This document shows, in pieces, positions 3 through 15,260 of a stretch of 64,000 bases of DNA. Numbering within the stretch: the stretch's first letter is position 1; every line of letters begins with the position of its first letter. Under the pieces are notes generated by a model. It was not told the origin of the DNA, searched no databases, and worked only from the letters and a program-made list of their open reading frames with translations. The position numbers were made by a program, and so were the translations under genes. Source of the stretch: Gemmatimonadota bacterium (lineage in GTDB: Bacteria > Gemmatimonadota > Gemmatimonadetes > Gemmatimonadales > Gemmatimonadaceae); NCBI GenBank assembly GCA_003134685.1, contig PLCA01000005.1, positions 124,001 through 188,000 on the forward strand, written 5' to 3'.

Positions 3-680
3 TTTCCCGAGGCGCGCAGTCACATCAGTCCGTCGAAGATGACCGAGGTGTTCGACTCCGGAAATCCCATCGAGCCCCCGCCTGCCGACGCGTTCGAAAA
101 GGCGCCGGCGCGGGCGAAATGGGGATTCTCGACGTCGGGCGGAAGTGTGCTGCTGGTCTACGGCGGAAGTCAGGGATCAAAGGCGATAAATGACGTTGTC
201 GCCGGATGGATCGACCAGGGCCTTCCGCCCGATCTGTTCGTGATCTGGGCGACGGGCAAGGCAAACTATGACGAGCTCGCGCGCTACGAGAGCGCGCGGG
301 TCAAGGTCAGAGCGTACATCGCGCCCGTCTCGGAAGCGTATCGCGCCGCGGACTTCGCGCTTACGCGCGCGGGCGCAATGGCGACGGCGGAGCTGTGCGC
401 GTGGGGAATTCCCGCAATCGTGGTCCCGCTCCCAACCGCCGCGGCAGACCATCAGACCGCCAACGCCAAAGCCCTGGCCGCGTCTGGCGCAGCGGAGATG
501 ATCCGGCAACCGGACCTCACCGTTGATGCACTATCCGGCACGGTTGAATCGATGCTGTCGAATCCAGCGAAGCTTGCGACGATGCGTGCCAAGGCTCTCG
601 ATCGCGCCAGGCCGACCGCGGCGGCCGACATCGCCCAACACATACTTCGTCTCGTCGAGAGCGGGCGGAAGCGGCGCTGA
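3..680 (+). CDS. murG: MurG, C-terminal part (cut by window start)
   Basis: This is the C-terminal part of UDP-N-acetylglucosamine--N-acetylmuramyl-(pentapeptide) pyrophosphoryl-undecaprenol GlcNAc transferase, which converts lipid I to lipid II on the inner face of the membrane. The frame is open from base 3 with no start, so the N-terminal domain lies outside the window. About 225 of the roughly 360 residues usual for the family are visible. They include the donor-binding domain with LLVYGGSQGSKAIND, the segment RAGAMATAELCAWGIPAIVVPLP and the AAADHQTANA loop, all typical of GT28/MurG. The gene is followed 30 bases later by murC, as in dcw clusters. The identification is firm; only the 5' end is missing. 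Confidence 0.95.
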   Translation, partial: FPEARSHISPSKMTEVFDSGNPIEPPPADAFEKAPARAKWGFSTSGGSVLLVYGGSQGSKAINDVVAGWIDQGLPPDLFVIWATGKANYDELARYESARVKVRAYIAPVSEAYRAADFALTRAGAMATAELCAWGIPAIVVPLPTAAADHQTANAKALAASGAAEMIRQPDLTVDALSGTVESMLSNPAKLATMRAKALDRARPTAAADIAQHILRLVESGRKRR

Positions 681-710
681 CGCGAGTCGGATTGCCGCCC
701 AACAACGCTG

Positions 711-2129
711 ATGACCTCAACGGATAGCTCCGACCAGCGTCCGGTTCATTTCGTCGGGATCGCCGGCGCCGGAATGCGCGCGCTCGCCGAGCTGCTCGCT
801 CGGCGTGGAGTTCTGGTGACGGGCTGCGACGCCAATCCGGGCCCGACGGACGATCTGGAGGCGCTCGGAATCAGCGTCGCCAAGGGACATAGCCCCGACC
901 ACGTCGAGGGTGCGCGCGAGCTGGTCGTCACGTCGGCGATGTCCAGGGCTCATCCCGAGCTCGCTCGCGCGCGTGAGCTCGGAATTCCGATCACCAGACG
1001 AGCGGAGGCGCTTGGATTGGCCGTTGCGGGCGGACGGGTTGTCGGAATCGCCGGCACTCATGGAAAGACGACGACGACAGTGATGACGACCGCCTCGCTC
1101 GCGGCCGCCGGTCTCAGGCCAACCGGGATTGCGGGTGGACGCGTCGCCGAGTGGAAGGGGAACCTTCACTACGAGTCGGACGAGCTGTTCGTCGTGGAAG
1201 CAGACGAATACGATCGATCCTTTCTCTCGCTGTCGCCGACCGTCGCCGTGGTGACGAACGTGGAGGCCGATCACCTCGACATCTATCGCGACCTCGAGGA
1301 CATCAGGATGACGTTCTCGCGATTCGTGCGCGACGCGGCCGCGATCGTCGTGTGCGACGATGACGCGGGGGCGAGGTCGCTGGATCTTCCGTCGAGCGCG
1401 GAAGTCATTCGCTACGGTATCAAATCCCGCGACGCGCGCCTTCTCGCGAGCGGTGTCAGAACCGACGGCCATTCGACGACTTTCTCTGTCACCTACGACG
1501 GTCGCCGCCTGGGCGATGTTGCTCTGCGCGTCCCGGGCTTTCACAACGTGCAGAACGCGCTCGCCGCGATCGGAGCGGGACATTCGCTGGGTGTCACGCT
1601 CGACGCCATGCGCCCGGGACTTCTCCATTTCGCGGGGGTGGATCGCCGCTTCCAGCATCTTTTCGATGTCGCGGGGGTGACGATCGTCGACGACTACGCG
1701 CACCATCCGACCGAAATCGCGGCGACGCTCCAGGCCGCGCGCGCGTCCTATCCGGGCCGACGCATCGTGGCGGCGTTTCAACCCCACCTCTTCTCGCGCA
1801 CGCGGGATTTCTCGGACGCGTTCGGAGAGGCTCTCTGCGGAGCGGACTGCGTTTTCCTGGCTGAGATTTATCCGGCACGCGAGCAGCCAATCCCCGGAAT
1901 CACGTCCGATCTGGTTGCTTCCTCGATGAAGCGAGCAGGGCGCGCGGTCACGTGGCAGGGATCGCGCTCAGAGCTCGCCGATGCGCTCACGAGCTTCGTG
2001 CTCGAGGGAGATGTCGTGATTACGATCGGCGCCGGGGACATCACGCGCACGGGACCCGAGCTCAAGTCACGGCTGGAGGCCCGGGTCACGACGCCCGAGG
2101 CCAAGTCGCGCCCCGAGGGCCGGAAATGA
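711..2129 (+). CDS. murC: UDP-N-acetylmuramate--L-alanine ligase MurC
   Basis: MurC adds L-alanine to UDP-MurNAc, the first amino-acid step of peptidoglycan precursor synthesis in the cytosol, using ATP. The 472-residue protein has the N-terminal Rossmann segment VHFVGIAGAGM (about residues 12-22), the ATP-binding GTHGKTTT loop (about 115-122), the central segment FVVEADEYDRSF and the C-terminal segment DDYAHHPTEI typical of Mur ligases. The length is normal. Its stop codon sits inside the first unit of a 23-bp tandem repeat, so the C-terminal EGRK is encoded by that repeat. It lies between murG and ftsQ, the standard dcw order. Confidence 0.97.
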   Translation: MTSTDSSDQRPVHFVGIAGAGMRALAELLARRGVLVTGCDANPGPTDDLEALGISVAKGHSPDHVEGARELVVTSAMSRAHPELARARELGIPITRRAEALGLAVAGGRVVGIAGTHGKTTTTVMTTASLAAAGLRPTGIAGGRVAEWKGNLHYESDELFVVEADEYDRSFLSLSPTVAVVTNVEADHLDIYRDLEDIRMTFSRFVRDAAAIVVCDDDAGARSLDLPSSAEVIRYGIKSRDARLLASGVRTDGHSTTFSVTYDGRRLGDVALRVPGFHNVQNALAAIGAGHSLGVTLDAMRPGLLHFAGVDRRFQHLFDVAGVTIVDDYAHHPTEIAATLQAARASYPGRRIVAAFQPHLFSRTRDFSDAFGEALCGADCVFLAEIYPAREQPIPGITSDLVASSMKRAGRAVTWQGSRSELADALTSFVLEGDVVITIGAGDITRTGPELKSRLEARVTTPEAKSRPEGRK

Positions 2130-12511: not shown

Positions 12512-13816
12512 ATGACCGTTGTGCCTTATTCGCGAATCTCGGAGCTACCCTCACACTCCGGCCAGGCCGTGCGGGTGCGCGGCTGGGTCACGCACGTCCG
12601 GTCGTCGGGCAAAGTCGCGTTCATCGTGATGCGCGACGGGACGGGGCTGCTCCAGGCGGTGCTCGTCAAAAACGCCGTCTCACCCGAGGCCTGGGATCGG
12701 TTCGGCAAGCTGACGCAGGAGACTTCCATCGAGGTCGAGGGCGAAGTCCGCCCCGATGCGCGCGCGCCTGGTGGGTTCGAGCTCGGCGTCAAGGATCTCT
12801 CGATCTACGGGGAGAGCCCGATCGACTATCCGATCCAGCCGAAAGAGCACGGCATCGACTTTCTCCTCGACAACAGGCACTTCTGGCTACGCACGCCGAG
12901 GCAGCGCGCGATTGGCCGCGTGAGGCACGAGGTCGAGCAGGCGATCCGCGATTTTTTCTACGAGCGGGATTTCACTCTCGTGGATACTCCAATCCTTACA
13001 TCGGCGATCGGTGAGCGAAGCGGGCTGTTCGGAACCGAGTATTTCGATCTGGGCACCGCATACCTGGCGCAGACCGGCCAGCTCTATGGCGAGGCGGCCG
13101 CGGCCGCGTTCGGAAAGATCTACTGCTTCGGCCCGACGTTCCGCGCCGAGAAGTCCAAGACGCGGAGACATCTCACCGAATTCTGGATGGTCGAGCCCGA
13201 GGTCGCCTTCAACGACTCCGACGACAACATGCGTCTCCAGGAAGAGTTCGTTTCGTACATCGTGGCGCGGGTCCTCGAGCGCAGGCAGCCCGAGCTAAAG
13301 GAGCTCGAGCGCGACGTCTCCAGGCTCGAGAAGATCAAAGCGCCCTTCCCTCGCATCGACTACAGCGACGCGGTAAAGATTCTGCAGGCGAAGGGAAGCT
13401 CGGTGAAATGGGGCGACGATCTTGGCGCCGAGGACGAGTCGTTGCTGGTCGAAGGACAGGACATTCCGGTCTTCATCTACAACTATCCGAAGCAGGCAAA
13501 AGCCTTCTACATGAAGGAAAACCCGGCCGACCAACGCACGGTGCTCTGCGACGACCTGCTGGCGCCTGAAGGCTATGGCGAAATCATCGGCGGCTCGCAG
13601 CGCGAGGACAATCACGACAAGCTTCTCGCCAGGATCAAGGAAGAGGGTTTGCCTGTCGATGCTTACAATTGGTACCTGGATCTCCGGAAGTACGGCACGT
13701 TCGTCCACTCCGGCTTCGGGTTGGGGCTGGAGAGAACGGTGGGCTGGATCTGCGGAATCCATCACATTCGCGAGGCAATTGCGTTTCCGCGAACAATGAA
13801 TCGGCTGCGGCCTTGA
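12512..13816 (+). CDS. asnS: Asparaginyl-tRNA synthetase
   Basis: AsnRS charges tRNA-Asn. The 434-residue protein has the N-terminal OB anticodon-binding domain (VRVRGWVTHVRSSGKVAFIVMRD) and a class IIb catalytic core. Motif 2 reads FRAEKSKTRRHLTEFWMVEPE and motif 3 GFGLGLERTVGWICG. The RRHLTEFWMVEPE form and QTGQLYGEA favour AsnRS over AspRS, and the length is shorter than bacterial AspRS because no GAD insertion is seen. The ATG at 12512 fits the family start. It is transcribed divergently from the kinase pair and followed by the ferritin-like gene. Confidence 0.93.
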   Translation: MTVVPYSRISELPSHSGQAVRVRGWVTHVRSSGKVAFIVMRDGTGLLQAVLVKNAVSPEAWDRFGKLTQETSIEVEGEVRPDARAPGGFELGVKDLSIYGESPIDYPIQPKEHGIDFLLDNRHFWLRTPRQRAIGRVRHEVEQAIRDFFYERDFTLVDTPILTSAIGERSGLFGTEYFDLGTAYLAQTGQLYGEAAAAAFGKIYCFGPTFRAEKSKTRRHLTEFWMVEPEVAFNDSDDNMRLQEEFVSYIVARVLERRQPELKELERDVSRLEKIKAPFPRIDYSDAVKILQAKGSSVKWGDDLGAEDESLLVEGQDIPVFIYNYPKQAKAFYMKENPADQRTVLCDDLLAPEGYGEIIGGSQREDNHDKLLARIKEEGLPVDAYNWYLDLRKYGTFVHSGFGLGLERTVGWICGIHHIREAIAFPRTMNRLRP

Positions 13817-13868: not shown

Positions 13869-14186
13869 ATGGGATTCGAGCAGTACCACGAGCCGGCCAG
13901 CGAGCTGTCGGCAAAGACGCGGACCTTTGCGCGGATGATCACTTCGATGATCGAGGAGGCCGAAGCGATCGGCTGGTACGAACAGCGTCTCTCGCTCGAG
14001 AAGGATCGCTCGGCGCGCGACATCATGCGCAACGCTCAGCACGAGGAGTTCAAGCATTTCGGGATGGACCTCGAGTTCCTGCTGCGGCGAAAGCCCAAAT
14101 GGCGCGAGATCCTGCAGGGGATTCTTTTCAAGCCCGGCGACATCGTCGAGCACGGTGTAGAGGCGGAGGAAGAAAGCTCCGAGTAG
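13869..14186 (+). CDS. Encapsulated-ferritin-like protein (EncFtn family)
   Basis: This 105-residue all-helical protein resembles EncFtn, the half-ferritin ferroxidase normally packed in encapsulin shells. Matching residues are Glu30 and Glu32 in MIEEAEAIGWYEQR, Trp36/Tyr37, Glu60 and His63 in HEEFKHFGMDLEFL, then KWREIL and LFKPGDI. These correspond to the metal-binding Glu/Glu/His set at the EncFtn dimer interface. The start at 13869 is supported by GAGGA at 13857-13861. The C-terminus ends in an acidic EAEEESSE and lacks the usual encapsulin-targeting peptide, and no encapsulin shell gene is next to it. Iron or metal oxidation is inferred from the family; encapsulation is doubtful. Confidence 0.82.
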   Translation: MGFEQYHEPASELSAKTRTFARMITSMIEEAEAIGWYEQRLSLEKDRSARDIMRNAQHEEFKHFGMDLEFLLRRKPKWREILQGILFKPGDIVEHGVEAEEESSE

Positions 14187-14663: not shown

Positions 14664-15260
14664 ATGGGGAAACGTGATCCTCGCGTTGACACTTACATCG
14701 CGAACTCGGCCGATTTTGCCAAGCCCATTCTTACACATATCCGCGCCGTCGTTCATGAGGCATGCCCTGACGTGGAAGAGACGATCAAATGGAGCATGCC
14801 GCATTTTGACCACGAAGGCATTCTCTGCGGCATGGCGTCGTTCAAGGAGCACTGCGCGTTCCACATCTGGAAGGGCTCGCTGATCGTAGGCGACGGGGCG
14901 CGCGAGGCCATGGGACAGTTCGGGCGCATCACCAGGGTTTCCGATCTCCCATCGAAGAAGGCAATCGCGGTTTACATCAGGCAGGCGATGAAGCTGAGAG
15001 AGGATGGAGTAAAGAATCCCGCCCGCTCGAAGCCCAGAAAGAAGGCGAGACTCGTCGTTCCGACGGAGCTCACGAGCGCGCTGAAGAACAACAAAAAGGC
15101 GGCCGCTGCGTTTGAGGGGTTTCCACCCAGCCACAAACGGGAGTACGCGGACTGGATTTCCGAAGCTAAGAGAGACGAAACGCGGAAGCGTCGCGTCGAT
15201 GCCGCGGTCGAGTGGATGGCAGAGGGAAAATCGCGGAACTGGAAATACGAAAAGCGCTGA
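14664..15260 (+). CDS. YdeI/OmdA-like protein with DUF1801-type domain
   Basis: The 198-residue protein has an N-terminal DUF1801/YdhG-type domain (VDTYIANSADFAKPILTHIR, WSMPHFDHEGILCGMASFKEH, HIWKGSLIVGD). Its C-terminal bacteriocin-protection/OmdA-type tail has LKNNKKAAAAFEGFPPSHKREY and the downstream basic region. Both domains are usual in YdeI-like proteins, whose biochemical role is unclear. The start at 14664 is preceded by GGGAGG at 14650-14655. Its stop directly abuts the stop of the convergent mazG, with no bases between the two reading frames. Confidence 0.85.
   Translation: MGKRDPRVDTYIANSADFAKPILTHIRAVVHEACPDVEETIKWSMPHFDHEGILCGMASFKEHCAFHIWKGSLIVGDGAREAMGQFGRITRVSDLPSKKAIAVYIRQAMKLREDGVKNPARSKPRKKARLVVPTELTSALKNNKKAAAAFEGFPPSHKREYADWISEAKRDETRKRRVDAAVEWMAEGKSRNWKYEKR

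What the first reader, a model, noticed from the sequence alone, without database searches (positions are those of the whole stretch)
13869..14186. Encapsulated-ferritin-like protein without encapsulin or targeting tail
The protein keeps the EncFtn metal residues (Glu30, Glu32, Glu60, His63, Trp36, Tyr37) but ends in an acidic tail lacking a cargo-loading peptide, and no encapsulin gene adjoins it. It may be a free ferroxidase or load into a shell encoded elsewhere, possibly with the small membrane protein next to it.
Basis: partly seen in the sequence, partly recalled or inferred. Interest (0 to 1): 0.6.

Follow-up and report, generated by a model that had tools for sequence, protein, structure and literature searches.

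The report
Shell-less encapsulin-type ferritin, distinct widespread clade
A soil bacterium (Gemmatimonadaceae) with no recognisable ferritin and no encapsulin shell carries a small iron-oxidising-type protein normally found inside protein nanocompartments; it belongs to a large, mostly uncharacterised family found as a stand-alone gene in many phyla, with close relatives in one actinobacterial class that do carry the shell tag and the shell gene.

Summary
The 105-aa protein at 13869-14186 (+) is EncFtn-like (Pfam PF22277, 78.5 bits; predicted EncFtn fold). All ferroxidase-centre residues are in register, there is no targeting peptide, and the 98%-complete genome has no family-1 encapsulin, ferritin/Dps/bacterioferritin or rubrerythrin by Pfam search. 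"EncFtn-like without a shell" is already a named kind (Non-EncFtn, s-FLP; PDB 3K6C). What seems new: this protein does not group with 3K6C. It belongs to a separate clade ("type II"), about 70-80% identical across some ten phyla (523 hits), also on conjugative plasmids, annotated there as hypothetical protein. The canonical outer metal motif HxxxEExEH is replaced by [N/D]xxxEExKH. Inside the same clade, Thermoleophilia members carry a linker plus SLGIGSLR and an encapsulin gene immediately downstream; every complete type II locus examined has tail plus shell or neither, and two genomes hold both forms. The neighbouring membrane protein is conserved only in close relatives and is probably unrelated. 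Most likely a free ferroxidase for Fe(II) detoxification; activity and oligomer are inferred. Whether tail and shell were gained or lost is unresolved (AU p=0.2).

The parts
13869..14186 (+). Type II EncFtn-like protein, 105 aa plus stop
   Evidence: PF22277 78.5 bits; PDB EncFtn homologues; AlphaFold2 model pLDDT 93.4, Foldseek best hits 5n5f/5da5/3k6c
13953..13979 (+). Helix A metal residues E29, E30, E32, W36, Y37 (Rru Glu31, Glu32, Glu34, Trp38, Tyr39)
   Evidence: Gap-free alignment to 5da5; E29, E30, W36, Y37 invariant in 138/138 clade members, E32 in 132/138
14031..14057 (+). Helix B motif N55-xxx-E59-E60-F61-K62-H63: ferroxidase E60 and H63 kept; canonical outer-site His57 and Glu64 replaced by N55 and K62
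   Evidence: Canonical sequences: H 11/11, E 11/11; type II: N/D 132/138, K 134/138; motif definition from PMC11202242
14124..14183 (+). Conserved C-terminal segment LFKPGDIVEHGVEAEEESSE; no targeting peptide; last helix predicted at residues 92-104
12512..13816 (+). Upstream neighbour, class II (D/K/N) aminoacyl-tRNA synthetase, asnS-like; genomic context only
   Evidence: Pfam tRNA-synt_2 in the syntenic upstream gene of L017
14229..14594 (+). Small membrane protein, 121 aa, judged NOT part of the system
   Evidence: No Pfam family above cut-off; adjacent only in the nearest Gemmatimonadaceae loci

Best explanation
A free-standing, shell-less ferritin-like ferroxidase. SHOWN: EncFtn sequence family and predicted fold, complete ferroxidase-centre residues, no targeting peptide, and no encapsulin, classical ferritin or rubrerythrin detected in this genome. 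INFERRED: two antiparallel helical hairpins pair to build one di-iron site per dimer, five dimers form an open ring as in R. rubrum EncFtn and 3K6C, and the ring oxidises cytosolic Fe(II). Without a cage it cannot hold a mineral core of its own, so it most likely acts in iron and oxidative-stress detoxification, or hands Fe(III) to other sinks or exporters, rather than as a bulk iron store. It belongs to a separate clade (type II) in which the outer electronegative metal path of canonical EncFtn (His57, Glu64) is replaced by Asn/Asp and Lys, so iron probably enters or leaves by a different route.
For: Family and fold. Residue conservation over 138 clade sequences. No PF04454, PF19307, PF00210 or PF02915 in the own genome. 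Of 57 clade-positive genomes searched, 3 have a family-1 encapsulin: two in Thermoleophilia, where this protein itself carries the targeting tail, and Parafilimonas terrae, whose shell follows a DyP peroxidase with its own tag. In the tree set, a shell gene lies beside 41 of 41 tailed loci and beside none of the 103 tail-less type II loci. Metal contexts: beside the iron exporter mbfA in Bradyrhizobium betae, and beside P1B heavy-metal ATPase, CzcA and CDF efflux genes in Bradyrhizobium and Rhodopseudomonas, on conjugative plasmids. In high-quality Gemmatimonadaceae genomes 12 of 13 carriers lack PF00210 against 27 of 92 non-carriers (Fisher p=2e-5).
Against: No biochemistry. The ferritin anticorrelation is weaker over all genomes (17/27 against 53/152 lacking, p=0.006), absent in the lower-quality genomes alone (5/14 against 26/60), and the genomes are not phylogenetically independent. 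Gene neighbours outside alphaproteobacteria show no metal theme. Di-iron geometry does not prove that iron is the substrate.
Confidence: 0.65

Rival explanations
1. The protein is a di-iron or other-metal enzyme or sensor (peroxide or O2 scavenging, or Mn/Zn/Ni handling) rather than a ferroxidase.
For: Heavy-metal efflux context on Bradyrhizobium and Rhodopseudomonas plasmids; charge reversal at the outer metal site, Glu64 to Lys.
Against: All ferroxidase-centre residues of R. rubrum EncFtn are invariant; mbfA iron-exporter context in two loci.
Confidence: 0.2
2. It loads into an encapsulin shell encoded elsewhere, through an unrecognised signal or by riding on another cargo.
For: Close relatives in Thermoleophilia look like shell cargo; genomes G755 and G729 hold both a tailed and a tail-less copy. 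A canonical-type short protein (L112) sits beside an encapsulin fused to DUF5661. The review PMC11202242 leaves this open for s-FLPs.
Against: No family-1 or SrpI-like shell in the 98%-complete own genome; family-1 shells absent in 54 of 57 clade genomes; tail and shell go together in the clade.
Confidence: 0.08
3. It is a decaying remnant of an encapsulin cargo gene.
For: A single loss of tail and shell is not rejected by the AU test (p=0.2).
Against: Intact ORFs about 70-80% identical across phyla, invariant active-site residues, and a conserved GDIVE..AE tail in 100+ sequences.
Confidence: 0.03
4. It works together with the adjacent small membrane protein, for example as an oxidase and exporter pair.
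For: Adjacent and co-directional in the window and its nearest relatives.
Against: The pairing disappears outside the closest Gemmatimonadaceae loci, and contexts otherwise vary.
Confidence: 0.03

Closest known systems
EncFtn, encapsulated ferritin (R. rubrum Rru_A0973, PDB 5DA5; H. ochraceum 5N5F)
   Same: Two-helix hairpin fold; ferroxidase residues Glu32, Tyr39, Glu62, His65; gateway Glu31/Glu34
   Different: No targeting peptide, no shell gene; His57 and Glu64 of the outer metal site replaced by Asn/Asp and Lys; Ala66 replaced by Phe; about 35-39% identity
s-FLP / Non-EncFtn, N. europaea NE0167 (PDB 3K6C)
   Same: Short C-terminus without targeting peptide, same fold and ferroxidase centre
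   Different: NE0167 keeps the canonical HxxxEExEH motif and groups with canonical EncFtn, not with this clade
Type II core plus SLGIGSLR in Thermoleophilia, upstream of encapsulin (L049, L070, L075, L095, L137-L173)
   Same: Same clade and same diagnostic residues, about 70-75% identical to the window protein
   Different: Carries linker plus targeting peptide and an encapsulin gene immediately downstream
MbfA (rubrerythrin-VIT1 iron exporter) and classical ferritins
   Same: Ferritin-superfamily iron handling; mbfA is the divergent neighbour on a Bradyrhizobium plasmid
   Different: No transmembrane domain and no cage-forming four-helix subunit

Membership tests
EncFtn-like superfamily (Pfam PF22277) | Profile match over the curated cut-off (27 bits) | tested here: met
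   78.5 bits, profile positions 1-84 of 85
EncFtn-like superfamily (Pfam PF22277) | Ferroxidase-centre residues Glu32, Tyr39, Glu62, His65 in register | tested here: met
   E30, Y37, E60, H63; invariant in 138/138 clade sequences
EncFtn-like superfamily (Pfam PF22277) | Antiparallel two-helix hairpin fold | tested here: met
   Model pLDDT 93.4, Foldseek prob 1.00 to 5n5f, 5da5, 3k6c, rmsd 1.4-2.0
EncFtn-like superfamily (Pfam PF22277) | Decameric ring and ferroxidase activity | not testable with these tools
   Only monomer prediction was available; no assay
Encapsulin cargo ferritin (EncFtn in the strict sense; TIGR04535) | C-terminal targeting peptide and a linked encapsulin shell gene | tested here: not met
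   No targeting motif; no PF04454 in the genome; TIGR04535 80.8 bits, below its cut-off of 125
Encapsulin cargo ferritin (EncFtn in the strict sense; TIGR04535) | Outer metal motif HxxxEExEH of bacterial EncFtns (PMC11202242) | tested here: not met
   NxxxEEFKH in the window; [N/D]xxxEExKH through the clade
s-FLP / Non-EncFtn | EncFtn-like, short C-terminus, no targeting peptide | tested here: met
s-FLP / Non-EncFtn | Groups with the only structural representative, 3K6C | tested here: not met
   3K6C falls with canonical EncFtn; the type II clade is separated by a branch with 100/100 support

The most novel reading that the evidence does not exclude
Type II is primarily a free, horizontally mobile ferroxidase family that can stand in for ferritin without any cage, and Thermoleophilia recruited it into encapsulins once by adding a targeting tail next to a shell gene. 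That would reverse the view of shell-less EncFtn proteins as cargo that lost its shell.
Probability: 0.35. Interest if true: 0.68.

Novelty: new variant of a known kind. Interest (0 to 1): 0.5.

Why it matters
EncFtn in isolation is reported to oxidise iron but not to mineralise it, so a widespread family that has the ferroxidase but no shell, in a genome with no recognisable ferritin, raises a concrete question: where does the Fe(III) go? The clade gives natural matched pairs (same core, with or without tail and shell, sometimes in one genome), which make the role of the shell and of the outer metal site directly testable.

Tried and rejected
(1) Neighbour-gene function: clustering of ORFs around 80 loci and a Pfam scan of 122 neighbour representatives gave no shared partner; only alphaproteobacterial loci show metal genes. 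(2) Membrane-protein partnership: rejected. (3) Phage origin: no match in 50,697 phage records. (4) Lysine 62 as a mark of shell loss: rejected, because the tailed, shell-linked members carry it too. (5) Direction of tail evolution: trees put the tailed members inside the tail-less clade, but forks are weakly supported and a single loss is not rejected. The shells of tailed members form one clade (quick tree with long outgroup branches), which fits one origin but does not settle direction. (6) Ferritin replacement: strong in high-quality genomes, weaker or absent otherwise, so only suggestive. (7) SrpI search: the standard control genomes did not ring, so it was repeated on 59 genomes, where 8 rang and the window's genome did not. 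Encapsulin families 3 and 4 were not searched.

Full report
OBSERVATION. The ORF at 13869-14186 (+) encodes 105 aa. The start at 13869 is supported because 14 of 14 Gemmatimonadota relatives begin at the same MxxxQYHEP. The protein matches Pfam EncFtn-like at 78.5 bits against a cut-off of 27. It matches NCBIfam TIGR04535 (encapsulin-associated ferritin-like) only at 80.8 bits, below its cut-off of 125; all 50 clade members scanned match that model at E<=0.001. Solved homologues are R. rubrum 5da5, H. ochraceum 5n5f/7oe2 and N. europaea 3k6c. The AlphaFold2 model (mean pLDDT 93.4; helices 15-43, 47-74, 76-83, 92-104) matches EncFtn chains and 3k6c.

GENOME. The genome (3.63 Mb, 16 contigs, 98.4% complete, 0.13% contamination) has one EncFtn-like gene. 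It has no match to family-1 encapsulin PF04454, classical ferritin/Dps/bacterioferritin PF00210 or rubrerythrin PF02915. SrpI-like shells (PF19307) gave nothing in the own genome; the standard controls were silent for that model, but in a repeat on 59 genomes 8 rang and this one did not.

NEIGHBOURS. The gene follows an asnS-like gene and precedes a 121-aa membrane protein without a Pfam family above cut-off. tblastn finds that membrane protein beside the ferritin-like gene only in the window and its closest Gemmatimonadaceae loci (L016-L020, L022). Among 80 loci from many phyla there is no shared neighbour. In alphaproteobacteria the gene sits in metal islands: divergent from mbfA on B. betae plasmid pBbPL7HG1 and in L071, and next to P1B ATPase, CzcA and PilZ genes, with CDF or MgtC in some, in four loci. 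Three of these loci are on conjugative plasmids, where the product is called hypothetical protein.

CLADE. A scan of genome contigs gave 523 relatives; the best 80 are 69-100% identical over nearly full length and come from Gemmatimonadota, Bacteroidota, Pseudomonadota, Chloroflexota, Actinomycetota, Acidobacteriota, Verrucomicrobiota and others, many of them metagenome bins. In trees they are separated from canonical EncFtn, including 3k6c, by a branch with full support. Canonical sequences have His at the position of N55, Glu at K62 and Ala at F64 in 11 of 11 cases; the clade has N/D in 132 of 138, K in 134 of 138 and F in 137 of 138. A 2024 review (PMC11202242) describes HxxxEExEH as the conserved bacterial EncFtn motif and proposes that its outer pocket guides iron; He et al. 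2016 (PMC5012862) call it the putative iron exit site. This protein therefore belongs to a distinct class, which I call type II here.

TAIL AND SHELL. In Thermoleophilia, type II proteins with the same core continue past GDIVExGxxAE with a linker and SLGIGSLR, and an encapsulin gene follows at a gap of -4 to +8 bases. All other type II members, including others in Thermoleophilia, stop at or soon after the acidic tail and have no adjacent shell. In the tree set a shell lies beside 41 of 41 tailed loci (type II and canonical), and 104 of 105 tail-less loci have no shell nearby. The one exception, L112, is a canonical-type protein beside a DUF5661-encapsulin fusion. Two genomes, G755 and G729, carry both a tailed and a tail-less copy. 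Since lysine 62 is present in both forms, it does not mark the loss of a shell. Trees place the tailed members inside the tail-less clade, which suggests gain, but a single loss is not rejected (AU p=0.2). The shells paired with type II form one group.

FERRITIN. In the same bacterial family (179 genomes), 17 of 27 carriers lack PF00210 against 53 of 152 non-carriers (p=0.006). In high-quality genomes the figures are 12 of 13 against 27 of 92 (p=2e-5). In the lower-quality genomes alone there is no association (5/14 against 26/60, from the same tables). Relatedness is not corrected for, so this is suggestive only.

MECHANISM. Shown: fold family, ferroxidase residues, no tag, no detected shell. 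Inferred: an iron-bridged dimer and ring as in EncFtn, Fe(II) oxidation in the cytosol, and a detoxifying rather than storage role, because isolated EncFtn oxidises but does not mineralise iron (PMC5012862). Where the Fe(III) goes is open.

COMPARISON AND NOVELTY. EncFtn-like proteins without a targeting peptide are known as Non-EncFtn (PMC5012862) and s-FLP (PMC11202242). The window protein meets that loose definition but differs from the only structural representative, 3k6c, in the outer metal motif and in phylogenetic position. In the papers I could search I found no description of this clade, of its K62 signature, or of its tailed Thermoleophilia branch; most subscription papers and the supplementary sequence lists could not be read, so priority is uncertain. 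Rating: new variant of a known kind.

Noticed in passing
L112 (genome G474), 118-1806, minus strand: A canonical-type EncFtn-like protein without a targeting peptide lies just upstream of a 404-aa encapsulin with an N-terminal DUF5661 domain; this could be tag-independent loading.
   Followed up: partly
L124/L154 (genome G755) and L127/L173 (genome G729): Two Thermoleophilia genomes hold both a tail-less type II protein and a tailed type II protein with its own encapsulin.
   Followed up: partly
L104, L105, L106 (plasmids of Bradyrhizobium and Rhodopseudomonas): The clade gene sits in metal-efflux islands of conjugative plasmids: beside mbfA in one, beside P1B ATPase, CzcA and CDF/MgtC genes in the others.
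   Followed up: partly
L097 (Parafilimonas terrae), 466-2307: Encapsulin preceded by a DyP peroxidase with a SLNIGSLKK tag, in a genome that also has a tail-less type II protein elsewhere.
   Followed up: partly
L174 (G443), L175 (G401), L177 (G486): A third, much weaker PF22277-matching group in Thermoleophilia: 75-aa proteins beginning MSD and containing HIDATDNPxIQK, unlike either class.
   Followed up: no
window 14664-15260: OmdA/DUF1801/DUF5655-domain protein downstream of the membrane protein; no evident link to the ferritin-like gene.
   Followed up: no
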